A stretch of 35,829 bases of DNA, from NCBI GenBank assembly GCA_030656075.1, contig JAUSOT010000270.1, forward strand, positions 1-35,829, written 5' to 3'. The notes under the pieces are model-generated. The model was not told the origin of the DNA, ran no database searches, and saw only the letters and a program-made list of their open reading frames with translations. The position numbers and the translations under genes are program-made. Source of the DNA: Candidatus Cloacimonadales bacterium (GTDB taxonomy: Bacteria; Cloacimonadota; Cloacimonadia; Cloacimonadales; TCS61). This document shows, piece by piece, positions 14,230 to 26,462 of the stretch (position 1 is the stretch's first letter; each line of letters opens with the position of its first letter).

Positions 14230-14293
14230 CGTTCCAACGCCGGAGCATTGGAACGAGATTTACATCCCCCTGTCAAGGGGGAACGAGGGGGTT
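14230..14293 (+). repeat. 64-bp composite REP-like direct repeat, copy 1
   Basis: cgttccaacgccggagcattggaacgagatttacatccccctgtcaagggggaacgagggggtt; 60/64 identical to 14501-14564. Confidence 0.85.
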
Positions 14294-14348
14294 GAGACTG
14301 ATAATCAGCTACTTTCTGAAGCTTCTTACAGAGAAAATCATCCTGCTG

Positions 14349-19190: not shown

Positions 19191-19200
19191 GGGGGATCAA

Positions 19201-19300
19201 GGGGGTTGAATTTGTGCCAAAGTTTGTTAAGTTCAAATTATTGATAGAAACTTTCGCAAAGCTCATAGAAAAAAAGCTGAAAGAAGCTTTGGGAAAGTAA
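19201..19300 (+). repeat. RAYT-flanking direct repeat, left copy
   Basis: gggggttgaatttgtgccaaagtttgttaag...gaaagaagctttgggaaagtaa; 91/100 identical to 20054-20153. Confidence 0.9.
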
Positions 19301-19310
19301 AGGAGATATT

Positions 19311-19889
19311 ATGTCAACATATCAAGACGATTGTATTTATCACATTTATAACAAAGGATGCAACGAAGAATTAGTTTTCTTTGATGATAGTAATTATAAA
19401 CTGCTGATTCGAAAGATGATCCATAATTATGAGAAATACGACGTTAGCATCATAGCATTTTGCTTGATGCCGAATCATTACCACATGTTGCTGCGTCAAA
19501 ATAGTGGAGGTTCGATCCTGAAATTTTTGACCAAGATTTTTTCTGCATATTCAGAAGCTGTCAAAAAAGAACAATCTATCAGTGGTGATGTATTTGAAGG
19601 CGATCCAAAATTTATTCGGATTGAAGAATTGGATCATTTACAGAATTTGATCTGGTATATTCATTATAATCCTCTTAAAGCAAGTTTAGTTCGGCGTCTT
19701 GAAACATGGAAATTTTCCAATTTTCCTGAATGTATCGGAGTCAGAAATGCGTTTCCCTATGATTTGAACCTGATTAATGACACATTTGGTTCAACAGCTG
19801 AATATAAAAATTTCGCTGATAAATCCAAAGATGATAAAATTTTTGAACTAGTGAAAAGTGAGTATTTGATAGATTATAATGTTAAATAG
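19311..19889 (+). CDS. REP-associated tyrosine transposase (RAYT / Y1_Tnp family)
   Basis: YHIYNKGC, FCLMPNHYHMLL (HUH), candidate catalytic Tyr in IFSAYSEAVKK, IWYIHYNPLKASLV. Confidence 0.93.
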   Translation: MSTYQDDCIYHIYNKGCNEELVFFDDSNYKLLIRKMIHNYEKYDVSIIAFCLMPNHYHMLLRQNSGGSILKFLTKIFSAYSEAVKKEQSISGDVFEGDPKFIRIEELDHLQNLIWYIHYNPLKASLVRRLETWKFSNFPECIGVRNAFPYDLNLINDTFGSTAEYKNFADKSKDDKIFELVKSEYLIDYNVK

Positions 19890-19996: not shown

Positions 19997-20053
19997 ACCC
20001 GGAATTTCCAGGGACGAAGTAAGTGAAAACCTCCCCCTAAATAGGGGGATCGT

Positions 20054-20153
20054 GGGGGTTGAAATTGTGCCAAAGTTCGTTAAGTTCAGAATAATGAAAG
20101 AATCTTTCGCAAAGCTTATAGAAAAAAAACTGAAAGAAGCTTTGGGAAAGTAA
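20054..20153 (+). repeat. RAYT-flanking direct repeat, right copy
   Basis: Preceded by intact ccccctaaatagggggatcgtggggg; 91/100 to the left copy. Confidence 0.9.
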
Positions 20154-20938: not shown

Positions 20939-21895
20939 ATGAAGTATTTATTTTTAATTGTCTTGATCTGTTTTTCGGGTATTTTGCTGCTGGCTCAGCA
21001 ACAGCCTGTGAACACCCAGCTGTCCATCAATGTGGACTACCTCTACGAACTGATCAAATTCTATCTTGCCGAAAATGAATTTGACCTGGCTCTCACTTAT
21101 CTCGATTCCACTATGGCTCATCCCACCGACTCGCTTTATTACTTCAAAGGCGAAGCTCTGAAAGGAAAAAAAGATTGGGAAGGTGCTGCTGATAATTTTG
21201 CCCGGTCGATCATCACCCACCGCCATCTGGATATTATGAAAGCAGCTAAAAAAAAATTGAAAGAAGTGCTGTTGCTGCTTCCTCCCATGAAATCTATCTC
21301 TTTGCTTTCCAGCTATATGAACGGTATAAAAAATGATGAAACTCTGACCCAATTCCTCTTTGTGCTGGCGGAAATCTATGAAGAAAATCAACTGTTTGAA
21401 GAAGCGAACGATGTTTATCAAACCATCTTGAAAGAAACCGATTACCGGGAAAAAGTGCCGGTGGAATTACGTATTGCTACAAATCTCATCTTCCTGAAAA
21501 ACTTTGAACAGGCGATCGTCACACTGAAGCCGGTAATCGCACTGAATGATCATATCTACAATGAAGATGCTCTATTCTTCTATTACATTGCCAATTACTC
21601 ATTAGAAGATTACAAAACAGCTAAAGAAGCTTTGCTCAGGCTTTACCAGGGATATCCCGATCATCCTAAGATAATCGAAATACTGAAAGGGCTGGCTGAA
21701 CTTTTTGAAAAAGAAAATCAACTTCTGATGAGTTGGTATTTCTACCAGGAACTGAAAAGTATCAGCAGCGAAGCCCAGAAATTCATAGTTCAGAAAGAAA
21801 TAGACCGGCTCAAACTAAGGATCGGCAGCGAGAAATTCATTACGGATCAGTTTAAGTATTTTAAGCCGAAGTTTGAGAAAAAAAAATCAGAATAA
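20939..21895 (+). CDS. Exported TPR-like repeat protein
   Basis: Signal peptide (MKYLFLIVLICFSGILLLAQQ), helical repeats. Confidence 0.75.
   Translation: MKYLFLIVLICFSGILLLAQQQPVNTQLSINVDYLYELIKFYLAENEFDLALTYLDSTMAHPTDSLYYFKGEALKGKKDWEGAADNFARSIITHRHLDIMKAAKKKLKEVLLLLPPMKSISLLSSYMNGIKNDETLTQFLFVLAEIYEENQLFEEANDVYQTILKETDYREKVPVELRIATNLIFLKNFEQAIVTLKPVIALNDHIYNEDALFFYYIANYSLEDYKTAKEALLRLYQGYPDHPKIIEILKGLAELFEKENQLLMSWYFYQELKSISSEAQKFIVQKEIDRLKLRIGSEKFITDQFKYFKPKFEKKKSE
21803..21860 (+). repeat. Direct repeat flanking the zeta cassette, copy 1 (inside TPR gene 3' end)
   Basis: gaccggctcaaactaaggatcggcagcgagaaattcattacggatcagtttaagtatt; 55/58 identical to 22706-22763. Confidence 0.9.
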
Positions 21896-21897
21896 CA

Positions 21898-22485
21898 ATG
21901 AAAAAGAAAACTATTTATATTCTTGCAGGTGCAAATGGCTCAGGTAAAACCACATTTGCCCAGGAATTTGTAGCTGCTTCACCGATAATATTTTTAAATA
22001 CTGATGAAATCGAAAAAGAATTTAATCCAGATGATAAAGAAGGTGGAAAAATCAGAGCAGGTAAAGTGTTCTTTGAGTGATTGCATAATCAGATTAGTTC
22101 TGGTAAAGATTTCGCGATTGAATCGACGCTTTCAGGTCGGTCTTTAATTAAAATATTTCAACAACTGAAGTTTGAAAAATATAGAATTATAGTATTATAC
22201 ATTTTTCTCGATTGTGTTAAAATTGCTGTAGATAGAGTTCGAGTTCGGGTTGAAGAAGGTGGTCATCATATTCCAACAGAAGATTTACAACGAAGATATT
22301 CCAGAAGCTTCAATAATTTCTGGAATATTTACAATGATTTAGCCGATGAATGGCAGATTTTTTATAATGGGGAAGATAACGTGATTCAAACGGCTTTTGG
22401 AGCAAAACAGGAATTCAAGATAATTGATGAAAGTAAATTTGATTTATTTATGAGAGGTTTAGATGTTAAAAATAACGAGTTATGA
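21898..22485 (+). pseudogene. Zeta-toxin-like P-loop kinase interrupted by an in-frame TGA (22078-22080)
   Basis: GANGSGKTTFAQEF Walker A, then after TGA in the same frame DFAIESTLSGRSLIK and VEEGGHHIPTEDLQRRYSRSFNNF (zeta hallmarks). Confidence 0.85.
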
Positions 22486-22657
22486 ACTGTTATTAGAAAT
22501 GACAAAAATATTTCAGCGAGCAGTCAAACGTGTTCAAAAATCGCATAAGGAAAATGGCTTGCCCAATGTGTATTCCAAAAATGGAGAAATTGTCTGGGAA
22601 TTGCCGGACGGTTCTTATGTGAAAGAGAATCCATTTGGCGAAGCAAAAGATAAATAA
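22463..22657 (+). CDS. Small protein, putative partner/antitoxin of the zeta-like gene
   Basis: Overlaps the end of the zeta reading frame; SKNGEIVWELPDGSYVKENPF. An alternative start is 22500. The antitoxin role is inferred from context only. Confidence 0.6.
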   Translation: MLKITSYELLLEMTKIFQRAVKRVQKSHKENGLPNVYSKNGEIVWELPDGSYVKENPFGEAKDK

Positions 22658-22672
22658 CCACAGATTAAAATT

Positions 22673-22786
22673 ATGGAACAATACGCTTTATACAGATTTA
22701 AATATGACCGGCTCAAACTGAGGATCGGCAGCGAGAAATTCATAACGGATCAGTTTAGGTATTTATATCCGGTTTTCGAACAATAA
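22673..22786 (+). pseudogene. 37-codon remnant: duplicated C-terminus of the TPR protein
   Basis: ATG...MEQYALYRFKYDRLKLRIGSEKFITDQFRYLYPVFEQ*, in frame with IDRLKLRIGSEKFITDQFKYFKPKFEKKKSE* of the 20939-21895 gene. Confidence 0.75.
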
Positions 22787-22860
22787 ATGTAAGATTACGT
22801 TACATAAATTTAATTGTATTTTTTGAATAAAATCAACATTTTCGCAAAACATTTAATTTA

Positions 22861-22889
22861 TTGACTTCAAATCTACTCAAATAAATTTG
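22861..22889 (+). promoter_or_regulatory. Candidate promoter for nifJ (Bacteroidota-like)
   Basis: TTGACT...TAAATTTG, 18 nt between TTG and the TAnnTTTG box; 46 nt upstream of the ATG. Confidence 0.45.
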
Positions 22890-22934
22890 GAACAAATTTT
22901 ATAGGTTATAATAAAAAATACATAAGAGGTAATT

Positions 22935-25900
22935 ATGAAGAAATTCAAAAAAGTGAGTATGGAAGGAAATAAGGCAGCCACGCATGTTGCTTATGCTTTC
23001 AGTGAAGTTGCTGCCATTTATCCCATCACGCCCTCGTCATTGATGGGCGAATTTGCCGATACCTGGGCTGCCAATGGTTTGAAAAATATTTTTGGTCAGG
23101 TTTTGGACGTTATGGAAATGCAGTCGGAAGCGGGAGCAGCCGGGGCCGTGCACGGTTCACTTTCTGCCGGAGCTTTCACCACCACCTTCACGGCATCCCA
23201 GGGTTTGATGTTGATGCTGCCGAACATGCACAAGATCGCCGGTGAAATGCTGCCGACGGTTTTCCATGTTTCCGCCCGTTCTCTCGCAGCGCAATCCCTT
23301 TCAATTTTTGGAGATCATTCCGACGTGATGAGCGCCCGTAACACCGGTTTTGCTCTGCTGGCAGAAGGTTCTGTGCAGGAAATTATGGATTTGTCCATAG
23401 TTTCTCATCTTGCCACGCTCAAATCAAAAGTGCCATTTATGAACTTCTTCGATGGTTTCCGTACTTCCAACGAAATTCAGAAAGTTGAAGAAATAGATTA
23501 TGAAACTATCAAAGAACTGGTGGAAACCAAATACGTGGAAGAATTCCGCAGCCGCGCTATGAATCCGGAAAAACCACGCGTAAAAGTGGGAGCTCAGAAT
23601 CCTGATGTATATTTCCAGGGTCGCGAAACAGTGAATAATTATTATGATGCCACTCCGGGAATCGTGCAGGAATACATGGATAAAGTAGCCAAAGTCATTG
23701 GACGCCAGTATCATCTGTTCGATTACGTCGGCGCTCCCGATGCCGAAAACATCATCATTGCCATGGGCAGCGGCATTGAAACGATCGAAGAAACCATCAA
23801 TTATCTGAACGCCAGAGGTTCTAAACTCGGACTGATCAAAGTTCGTCTTTATCGTCCATTCTCCGTTCAGGCTTTCATGGATGCAATTCCGGCCAGCGTG
23901 AAGAAGATCGCCGTGCTGGATAGAACCAAAGAACCGGGCTCCATCGGCGAACCGCTTTATCTCGATATCGTTGCAGCTCTCAAAGACCGAAAAGATCTAA
24001 CAATTGTTGGTGGACGTTACGGACTTTCATCCAAAGAATTCACACCTCCCATGGTGAAAGCAGTTTACGACCATTTGGCAGGCAAATGCACTCATAATTT
24101 CACAGTTGGAATTAATGACGATGTCAGTAATCTTTCAATAGAAATCAAAGATCAGATCAACACGCTGCCGGAAGGAACGATCAGCTGCAAATTCTGGGGG
24201 CTGGGTTCCGACGGCACAGTGGGCGCCAACAAAAATTCCATCAAGATCATCGGTGATAACACGGATCTTTACACTCAGGGTTATTTCCAATACGACTCCA
24301 AGAAATCCGGCGGCATCACCCGTTCCCACCTACGTTTCGGCAAAAAACCGATCCAGTCTCCCTACCTGGTTTTCGCTGCCGACTTCATCGGCTGTCACAA
24401 CCAGGCTTTCATCGGCCGCTATGATGTATTGGAAGGCATCAAGGAAAACGGCGTGTTCCTGCTGAATTCAAACTGGGAACATGATGAAGTATTTGAAAAC
24501 CTGACCAAACACGATCAGCAGGTCATCATCGATAAAAAAATTAAATTATATAACATCAACGCCCTGGTGATCGCCAACGAAGTAGGTTTGGGAACTCGTA
24601 TTAATACAGTTATGCAAACTGCTTTCTTCCTGATTTCCGGTGTTTTGGAAAGAGAAGAAGCGATCAAAATGATCAAGAAAGCTACTGAAAAAGCTTACCA
24701 AAAGAAAGGTCAGAAAATTGTTGAAATGAACTGGAAAGCTATTGATAAAACTAATGAAGCTTTAGTGGAAATTCCGGTTCCCAATGTGTTGCCGGCAACA
24801 TCCGCAGAAATTAAAAAACTCATCCCGGATAATTCGGATGATTTCACCAGGAATGTAATAGAAAAGATCATGCGAGAAAAAGGCGATGAAATTCCTGTAT
24901 CTCATATGCCTTTTGATGGTTCCATTCAATCCGGAACTACGAAACTGGAAAAACGCGGTGTTGCTCCTTTCGTTCCGCATTGGATTCCCGAAAACTGTAT
25001 TCAGTGTAATCAATGTTCGGTGGTTTGTCCACATGCTGCCATCCGTCCAAAACTTTTTACAGAAGAAGATCTAAAAAATGCTCCTAAAAATTTCCGTTAC
25101 GTTACTGCAACTGGTAAAGATAAAGATACTTACAAATATACGATGCAGGTTTATATCGAAGATTGCGTAGGCTGCGAAAACTGCGTATTGGAATGTCCGA
25201 AAGCAGCTCTGGAAATGAAACCGATCGCCGAGGAACGAGAACACGGCGAATCTGAAAATGCTCTCTTCTTTGATGCATTGCCCAGCGATGTGATGGGTTC
25301 AAACAGCGATACAACGATCAAAGGCAGCCAGTTCAAACAGCCGCTGCTTGAGTTCTCCGGTGCTTGTGCAGGTTGCGGAGAAACACCTTATGTAAAACTC
25401 ATTACTCAATTATTTGGTGACAGAATGATCGTAGCCAATGCTACCGGTTGTTCTTCTATCTGGGGCGGAACGTTCCCAACCATGCCATATTGTACAAATA
25501 AAAATGGTTATGGCCCGAGTTGGGCAAATAGTCTTTTTGAAGATAACGCTGAATATGGCTTTGGTATGAGCCTGGCTGTGAATGCTAACCGAAAACAGCT
25601 CAAAGCAAACGTCGAAATCCTCATGGGAAAAGAAATTACTGCAGAACTTAAAGCCGCTTTCCAATTTGCTTTGGATAATTGGGATGCAGCGGACGATGCA
25701 GTTAAAGCTAATTCTACAAAAATCCAAACGCTTCTGAAAAAAGAGATCGAGCTACCCTGCTGTGATTGCCGAAAAGGCATCCTTAAAAAAGTGATCGAAC
25801 TTCAGCATTATTTTGTTCCAAAATCTGTCTGGGCTTTCGGTGGTGACGGTTGGGCTTACGACATCGGTTATGGCGGCGTGGATCACGTGATGGCTTCCGG

Positions 25901-26462
25901 CAGAAATATGAATATTCTCGTTTTGGATACCGAAGTTTATTCCAATACCGGCGGACAGGCTTCCAAAGCTACCCCGCTTGGTTCCGTGGCAAAATTTGCT
26001 GAATCCGGTAAGAAAACAGTGAAGAAAGATATGGGAATGATGATGATGAGCTACGGCTACGTTTATGTGGCATGCATCGCGCTGGGAGCGAACAAGGTTC
26101 AGGCTCTGAAAGCAATTCGCGAAGCCGAAGCTTATAACGGACCTTCGATCATTATGGCTTATGCACCGTGTATCAATCATGGCATTGATATGACCAAAAC
26201 CCAGAAGGAAGAAAAGAAAGCTGTCGATACAGGCTACTGGCTACTTTACAGGTACAATCCCGATCTGAAGAAAGAAGGAAAAAATCCTTTCGTTCTCGAT
26301 TCCAGAGAACCGACAATTCCGGTTGTGGAATTTCTGAAAGGAGAAGGACGTTACACTTCCCTGGAAAGAACCTTCCCGGATAAAGTGGAAGGTTTCCGTT
26401 CGGAATTCGATAAATATGCCAAAGAGCGTTATCTGAAATATAAGAAAATGGCAGAAGAATAG
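22935..26462 (+). CDS. nifJ: Pyruvate:ferredoxin (flavodoxin) oxidoreductase
   Basis: YPITPSSLMGEFAD, two CxxCxxC ferredoxin motifs (CIQCNQCSVVCP, CVGCENCVLECP), TPP domain GDGWAYDIGYGGVDHV, NTGGQASKATP. Confidence 0.97.
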   Translation: MKKFKKVSMEGNKAATHVAYAFSEVAAIYPITPSSLMGEFADTWAANGLKNIFGQVLDVMEMQSEAGAAGAVHGSLSAGAFTTTFTASQGLMLMLPNMHKIAGEMLPTVFHVSARSLAAQSLSIFGDHSDVMSARNTGFALLAEGSVQEIMDLSIVSHLATLKSKVPFMNFFDGFRTSNEIQKVEEIDYETIKELVETKYVEEFRSRAMNPEKPRVKVGAQNPDVYFQGRETVNNYYDATPGIVQEYMDKVAKVIGRQYHLFDYVGAPDAENIIIAMGSGIETIEETINYLNARGSKLGLIKVRLYRPFSVQAFMDAIPASVKKIAVLDRTKEPGSIGEPLYLDIVAALKDRKDLTIVGGRYGLSSKEFTPPMVKAVYDHLAGKCTHNFTVGINDDVSNLSIEIKDQINTLPEGTISCKFWGLGSDGTVGANKNSIKIIGDNTDLYTQGYFQYDSKKSGGITRSHLRFGKKPIQSPYLVFAADFIGCHNQAFIGRYDVLEGIKENGVFLLNSNWEHDEVFENLTKHDQQVIIDKKIKLYNINALVIANEVGLGTRINTVMQTAFFLISGVLEREEAIKMIKKATEKAYQKKGQKIVEMNWKAIDKTNEALVEIPVPNVLPATSAEIKKLIPDNSDDFTRNVIEKIMREKGDEIPVSHMPFDGSIQSGTTKLEKRGVAPFVPHWIPENCIQCNQCSVVCPHAAIRPKLFTEEDLKNAPKNFRYVTATGKDKDTYKYTMQVYIEDCVGCENCVLECPKAALEMKPIAEEREHGESENALFFDALPSDVMGSNSDTTIKGSQFKQPLLEFSGACAGCGETPYVKLITQLFGDRMIVANATGCSSIWGGTFPTMPYCTNKNGYGPSWANSLFEDNAEYGFGMSLAVNANRKQLKANVEILMGKEITAELKAAFQFALDNWDAADDAVKANSTKIQTLLKKEIELPCCDCRKGILKKVIELQHYFVPKSVWAFGGDGWAYDIGYGGVDHVMASGRNMNILVLDTEVYSNTGGQASKATPLGSVAKFAESGKKTVKKDMGMMMMSYGYVYVACIALGANKVQALKAIREAEAYNGPSIIMAYAPCINHGIDMTKTQKEEKKAVDTGYWLLYRYNPDLKKEGKNPFVLDSREPTIPVVEFLKGEGRYTSLERTFPDKVEGFRSEFDKYAKERYLKYKKMAEE

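What the first reader, a model, noticed from the sequence alone, without database searches (positions are those of the whole stretch)
21803..22786. Zeta-toxin cassette bracketed by a duplicated, in-frame 3' end of the TPR gene
21803-21860 (inside the TPR gene) and 22706-22763 (after the cassette) match 55/58, and homology continues at protein level to each stop: DRLKLRIGSEKFITDQFKYFKPKFE.. versus DRLKLRIGSEKFITDQFRYLYPVFE... The cassette (kinase + small protein) lies exactly between them, 2 nt after the TPR stop. This resembles insertion into a gene's 3' end with regeneration of the terminus, as for elements that use gene ends as attachment sites, but here a protein-coding gene and a toxin module with no visible integrase. 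A tandem TPR paralogue reduced to a stub is the main alternative.
Basis: partly seen in the sequence, partly recalled or inferred. Interest (0 to 1): 0.7.

Follow-up and report, generated by a model that had tools for sequence, protein, structure and literature searches.

The report
Toxin-like cassette with duplicated gene end
A small, now broken toxin-like two-gene cassette was inserted just behind a housekeeping gene, and the insertion left a second copy of that gene's last 26 codons; it looks like a one-off scar of ordinary DNA uptake and recombination, not a new kind of mobile element.

Summary
21803-21860 and 22706-22763 match 55/58, and the TPR reading frame continues to a stop in each copy. 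Between them lies a zeta-type kinase gene plus a small partner gene.

A species of the same genus (G002) shows the empty site: one TPR gene, then 137 nt, then nifJ. That intergenic DNA matches what follows copy 2, so the tandem-paralogue alternative is unsupported. The cassette is scattered: 8 of 125 genomes of the phylum, always at other loci. In G008 and G107 it sits cleanly between two operon genes; in G116 it is an integron cassette. No sister copy carries a duplicated gene end, there is no recombinase, and a 661-kb scan found no second case. So the duplication is a scar of this one insertion, not an attachment-site property.

The first 58 nt of the copies are 95% alike, but the last 23 nt of coding sequence only 57% (Fisher p = 1e-4). 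The two tails are therefore different TPR alleles. Best fit: one-sided homologous recombination with, or circle insertion of, a donor fragment carrying 'TPR tail + zeta operon'. Known kind of event; modest interest.

The parts
20939..21895 (+). TPR-repeat protein gene; its last codons (21803-21895) are repeat copy 1, with tail DQFKYFKPKFEKKKSE*
   Evidence: Pfam TPR_14 7.6e-8; homologues in 30 of 40 relatives searched
21803..21860 (+). direct-repeat core, copy 1
   Evidence: 55/58 to copy 2
21898..22485 (+). zeta-toxin/AAA_33-type kinase gene, interrupted by TGA at 22078-22080 (codon 61)
   Evidence: Pfam AAA_33 2e-8, Zeta_toxin 1.7e-7; TGA seen; homologues uninterrupted in L028, L029 and L030
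22463..22657 (+). small 64-aa partner gene, overlapping the kinase end by 23 nt; candidate antitoxin, no known family
   Evidence: conserved downstream partner of the kinase in L028-L030, L037-L045 and others; no Pfam above cut-off, no NCBIfam or PADLOC match
22658..22705 (+). 48-nt spacer of unknown origin, ending in the sharp left boundary of the stub
   Evidence: 17/60 identity left of the repeat; no second copy in the genome when 21750-22800 was searched
22706..22786 (+). repeat copy 2: TPR 3'-end stub (26 codons + stop), divergent tail FRYLYPVFEQ*
   Evidence: found as the second TPR match of the genome; core/tail contrast; profile score 26.8 bits
22787..22934 (+). native TPR-nifJ intergenic region
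   Evidence: aligns with the 137-nt TPR-nifJ interval of G002 and the nifJ-proximal part in G001
22935..26462 (+). nifJ-type pyruvate:ferredoxin oxidoreductase gene, the native right neighbour
   Evidence: tblastn to relatives, 77-96% identity

Best explanation
This is the scar of one horizontal insertion of a promoterless zeta-kinase + small-protein operon into the gap between the TPR gene and nifJ. A donor fragment carrying the 3' tail of a related TPR gene with the zeta operon behind it recombined at its TPR end with the resident TPR 3' end. Its other end joined illegitimately (homology-facilitated illegitimate recombination), or the fragment circularised and went in by a single crossover. 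The result is a TPR gene with a donor tail, then the cassette, then about 58-81 nt of duplicated resident TPR end with its own tail, followed by the untouched nifJ upstream region. Both neighbours stay functional. The cassette has since lost its kinase to a nonsense mutation. Shown: the repeat, the empty site, the scattered cassette, clean insertions elsewhere, the core/tail contrast, and the broken kinase. Inferred: the donor arrangement, the recombination route, and that the cassette lacks its own promoter.
For: Empty site in G002, with intergenic DNA matching the right side of copy 2. TPR-nifJ order in 11 family members. Zeta operon present in only 8 of 125 genomes of the phylum, always elsewhere. 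Cassette GC 32-35% against 39-45% for its neighbouring genes. Core 95% versus tail 57% identical, p = 1e-4, which uniform drift of one duplication does not give. Tail 1 (FKPKFE) and tail 2 (LYPVFE) both score as true TPR tails. The left boundary of the stub is sharp, as at an illegitimate join. Precedents: in E. coli conjugation experiments most recombinants carried 109-950 bp duplications of the homologous end from single crossover of re-circularised fragments (PMC3240628); orphan 3' ends behind new modules are explained this way for T6SS/Rhs loci (PMC5361080).
Against: No genome was found with the zeta operon behind a TPR gene carrying tail 1, so the donor is hypothetical. By DNA, tail 1 is closer to G002 (28/33, counted by hand) than tail 2 is (24/33), so it is not certain which tail is native. 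HFIR usually deletes rather than duplicates (PMC3240628). All evidence for the window arrangement rests on one contig of a draft genome.
Confidence: 0.55

Rival explanations
1. Insertion with long target duplication: the cassette entered by an unknown cut-and-fill process that duplicated about 81 nt of the target. The two ends were identical at first; copy 2, free of selection, then changed, with the core kept alike by chance or gene conversion.
For: Pattern as described for restriction-modification genes in H. pylori (Nobusato et al. 2000, as reported in PMC1643837). Single end in G002. Tail 2 is the faster-changing one relative to G002.
Against: 3/58 against 10/23 mismatches is hard to get from uniform drift (p = 1e-4). 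Clean zeta insertions in G008 and G107 show no such duplication.
Confidence: 0.22
2. Site-specific integrative element that uses the TPR 3' end as attB and regenerates it, integrase lost or acting in trans.
For: Insert exactly behind the gene, both ends in frame, divergent regenerated tail, near-identical core.
Against: No recombinase in the insert; related cassettes sit at unrelated sites without gene-end repeats. In G116 the operon moves as an integron cassette with attC sites, of which none was seen in the window. The homologous block extends far upstream of the tail junction.
Confidence: 0.07
3. Tandem TPR duplication followed by cassette insertion and deletion of most of the second gene.
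For: Explains two different but homologous tails.
Against: No relative shows a tandem TPR pair here. The core is too alike (95%) for an old paralogue whose tail is 57% alike.
Confidence: 0.1
4. Assembly chimera of two strain variants in a draft, probably metagenome-assembled genome.
For: 282-contig genome; repeat shorter than common k-mers; divergent tails could be two strains.
Against: The junction 48-nt spacer | GACCGG needs reads that span it. No second copy of any piece was found in the genome.
Confidence: 0.06

Closest known systems
Insertion with long target duplication (Nobusato et al. 2000; restriction-modification genes in H. pylori)
   Same: Small selfish-type module between direct repeats that are single in the relative lacking it.
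   Different: The module here is a zeta-type kinase pair, the repeats differ strongly in their last third, and the comparison is between species, not strains.
Homology-facilitated illegitimate recombination / single crossover of re-circularised fragments (PMC3240628), and orphan 3' gene ends at T6SS/Rhs loci (PMC5361080)
   Same: New module placed behind a gene whose 3' end is exchanged, with the old 3' end left behind downstream; no dedicated recombinase.
   Different: No donor strain in hand; the host gene is a TPR protein, not a polymorphic toxin; a short end is duplicated rather than a large displaced one.
Zeta toxin family (epsilon-zeta, PezAT)
   Same: Walker-A kinase of Pfam Zeta_toxin/AAA_33 with a small partner gene.
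   Different: Partner is downstream and matches no known antitoxin family in the libraries searched; the kinase here is interrupted.
Integron gene cassettes
   Same: A relative of this operon is one in G116 (L037), with attC sites.
   Different: No attC-like site was seen at the window insertion.

Membership tests
Insertion with long target duplication | direct repeat flanking the insert | tested here: met
   55/58 core
Insertion with long target duplication | single copy of the repeat in a genome lacking the insert | tested here: met
   G002, (different species of the genus)
Insertion with long target duplication | the two copies derive from the same target sequence along their whole length | tested here: inconclusive
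   core yes, tail 13/23 only, p = 1e-4
Insertion with long target duplication | insert carries restriction-modification genes | tested here: not met
   zeta kinase + small protein
Integrative element using a gene 3' end as attB | recombinase in the insert | tested here: not met
   insert holds only two genes and a stub
Integrative element using a gene 3' end as attB | repeated use of the same kind of end by relatives | tested here: not met
   no flanking gene-end repeat at sister cassettes
Zeta toxin family | Pfam Zeta_toxin/AAA_33 kinase match above cut-off | tested here: met
   AAA_33 35.1 bits (cut-off 27), Zeta_toxin 31.3 bits (cut-off 22.3), with the stop read as X
Zeta toxin family | uninterrupted kinase gene | tested here: not met
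   in-frame TGA at codon 61
Toxin-antitoxin pair | small protein neutralises the kinase | not testable with these tools
   only conserved linkage
Integron cassette | attC site behind the genes | tested here: inconclusive
   none seen by eye in 22658-22786; no attC model was run
Homology-facilitated illegitimate recombination | homologous junction at one end, non-homologous junction at the other | tested here: inconclusive
   divergent tail fits a homologous or homeologous junction and the left edge of the stub is sharp, but donor DNA is unknown

The most novel reading that the evidence does not exclude
The zeta-kinase + small-protein operon is a recombinase-less mobile cassette that is in some way aimed at gene-gene junctions inside operons (TPR|nifJ here, a membrane-protein gene|holA-like gene in G008, transketolase N|C in G107), sparing both neighbours, with occasional duplication of the upstream gene's end.
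Probability: 0.07. Interest if true: 0.65.

Novelty: new member of a known kind. Interest (0 to 1): 0.3.

Why it matters
It shows how a small addiction-type module can settle behind a core gene without any recombinase of its own and without damaging either neighbour, leaving a readable scar. It is a warning that duplicated, in-frame gene ends are not by themselves evidence of an integrative element. The by-product, a conserved zeta kinase + downstream small-protein operon without a curated partner family, is a plausible uncharacterised toxin-antitoxin type.

Tried and rejected
(1) attC-like sites: the 11-bp inverted repeat GTTAGCTACC/GGTAGCTAAC around the G010 cassette is within chance for that length of sequence (own estimate) and was dropped. 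(2) The 110-nt repeat at 19191-19300/20044-20153 first looked like a second duplicated gene end, of Sir2. It is not: Sir2 genes in relatives end elsewhere, and the repeat belongs to REP-like elements around an IS200-like transposase gene. (3) Import of nifJ with its upstream region from a G002-like donor: rejected, because nifJ is conserved in general (82% DNA to G002, 79% to G001). (4) Scan of 661 kb (own-genome samples, the window, G001 and other stretches) for other gene-end duplications: the other hits look like tandem paralogues, mostly with PNPFNP-type C-terminal domains. (5) Plasmid, phage and viral-contig searches gave only distant zeta relatives.

Full report
What is there. The window holds the order Sir2, an IS200-like (Y1) transposase gene among REP-like repeats, a BadF-type ATPase, a TPR protein (20939-21895), a zeta-type kinase frame (21898-22485), a small gene (22463-22657), a 48-nt spacer, a TPR end stub (22706-22786), 148 nt, and nifJ (22935-26462). 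The direct repeat is exactly as reported, 55/58 with 903 nt between starts. A whole-genome protein search finds the TPR end twice and no more. A nucleotide search with 21750-22800 finds no second copy of any part elsewhere in the genome.

The cassette is broken. The kinase frame carries TGA at 22078-22080 (codon 61); uninterrupted homologues in other genomes have a sense codon there. TGA is an ordinary stop in this genome: 4 of 24 window genes end in it, as does the kinase frame itself. So this is a nonsense mutation, or a sequencing error, not recoding. The small gene is intact.

Empty site. In G002, of the same genus, the TPR gene is followed by 137 nt and then nifJ. Those 137 nt align with 22787-22934, the DNA to the right of copy 2. 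Ten further genomes of the family keep TPR directly before nifJ with gaps of 66-150 nt. In G001, the other genome of the genus, a two-gene operon resembling a TAXI/TRAP transporter (naming from my own reading of the sequence) sits in the same gap. Its first start codon overlaps the TPR stop, and no TPR stub was found next to nifJ. So the gap has taken two independent insertions in one genus, and one TPR copy before nifJ is ancestral. This speaks against a tandem paralogue reduced to a stub.

Is the duplication a property of the cassette? The kinase + small gene pair or its kinase occurs in 8 of 125 genomes of the phylum, at unrelated places, and in other phyla. A flank-against-flank comparison of the fetched copies finds no duplicated gene end at a sister cassette. 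Repeats near some copies were followed up where they looked relevant: REP-like repeats (L031), gene paralogues (L054) and, in G116 (L037), attC sites of an integron array; weaker ones (L059, L060, L063) were not. Two sister insertions can be compared with empty sites. In G107 the pair lies between two transketolase subunit genes that abut or overlap in relatives. In G008 it lies between a membrane-protein gene and what reads as the start of a holA-like gene, which follow each other directly in relatives. Neither junction has a duplicated gene end. A scan of 661 kb found no second case of a gene end repeated around a foreign cassette. The duplication is therefore best read as a feature of this one event.

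How the scar arose. Identity is 55/58 in the first part of the repeat and 13/23 from there to the stub's stop (Fisher p = 1.0e-4). Both tails are genuine TPR tails by profile score (54.2 and 51.6 bits in context). A single duplication that then drifted evenly does not give this contrast. If both cores come from the resident gene while one tail was brought in by a donor, the contrast follows directly. Copy 1 would be resident core + donor tail, followed after 2 nt by the donor's zeta operon. Copy 2 would be the resident's own core and tail in front of its own intergenic DNA. This is the product expected from recombination in the TPR end on one side and an illegitimate join on the other, or from a single crossover of a circularised fragment. 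In E. coli conjugation experiments with one-end homology, 56 of 60 analysed recombinants had such duplications, 109-950 bp in the 14 sequenced (PMC3240628). The same type of event is invoked for orphan 3' ends at T6SS and Rhs loci (PMC5361080). Insertion with long target duplication, reported for restriction-modification genes (Nobusato et al. 2000, via PMC1643837), is the closest pattern-level precedent.

Weak points. The donor is not in hand. Tail 1 is a little closer to G002 in DNA than tail 2, so which tail is native is inferred from position (tail 2 adjoins the native intergenic), not from phylogeny. The tails are too short for a tree. The cut between core and tail was chosen after seeing the alignment, so the p-value is somewhat flattering, though cuts at every position from 45 to 60 stay below 0.002. 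All rests on one contig of a draft genome.

Function. The most likely present function of the cassette is none: the kinase is interrupted. Originally it was probably a zeta-type toxin with a small partner expressed from the TPR operon; there is no obvious ribosome-binding site before the kinase, and its start is 2 nt after the TPR stop (by eye). That the partner is an antitoxin is inference from conserved linkage alone.

Noticed in passing
22463-22657; L028-L031, L033, L037-L045, L061, L062: A 60-70 aa protein with the motif GxPNVYSxNGxIxxELPDG follows zeta-type kinases as an overlapping or adjacent second gene in many phyla. It has no Pfam, NCBIfam or PADLOC family: a candidate uncharacterised antitoxin with reversed gene order.
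   Followed up: partly
22078-22080: In-frame TGA in the kinase; the cassette is a decaying pseudogene or the base is a sequencing error.
   Followed up: yes
L037 (G116:C381): The same operon type sits in an integron cassette array with several attC-like repeats.
   Followed up: partly
L038 (G107), L029 (G008): The operon is inserted cleanly at gene-gene junctions inside operons: transketolase N|C subunits, and a membrane-protein gene|holA-like gene.
   Followed up: partly
L065 (G001:C7), about 52800-56345 of the contig: A TAXI/TRAP-like transporter operon occupies the same TPR-nifJ gap in a second species of the genus; its start codon overlaps the TPR stop.
   Followed up: partly
19191-19300 and 20044-20153, also 240-291, 366-417, 14259-14310: REP-like repeats (CCCCCTAAATAGGGGGATCGAGGGGG...), a 110-nt pair of which brackets the Y1 (IS200-like/RAYT-like) transposase gene 19311-19889. 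G001 has a similar gene at the same place.
   Followed up: partly
22841-22934: Upstream DNA of nifJ is strongly conserved between the species of the genus (TTTAATTTATTGACTTCAA...TTTGGAACAAATTT), a probable regulatory region.
   Followed up: no
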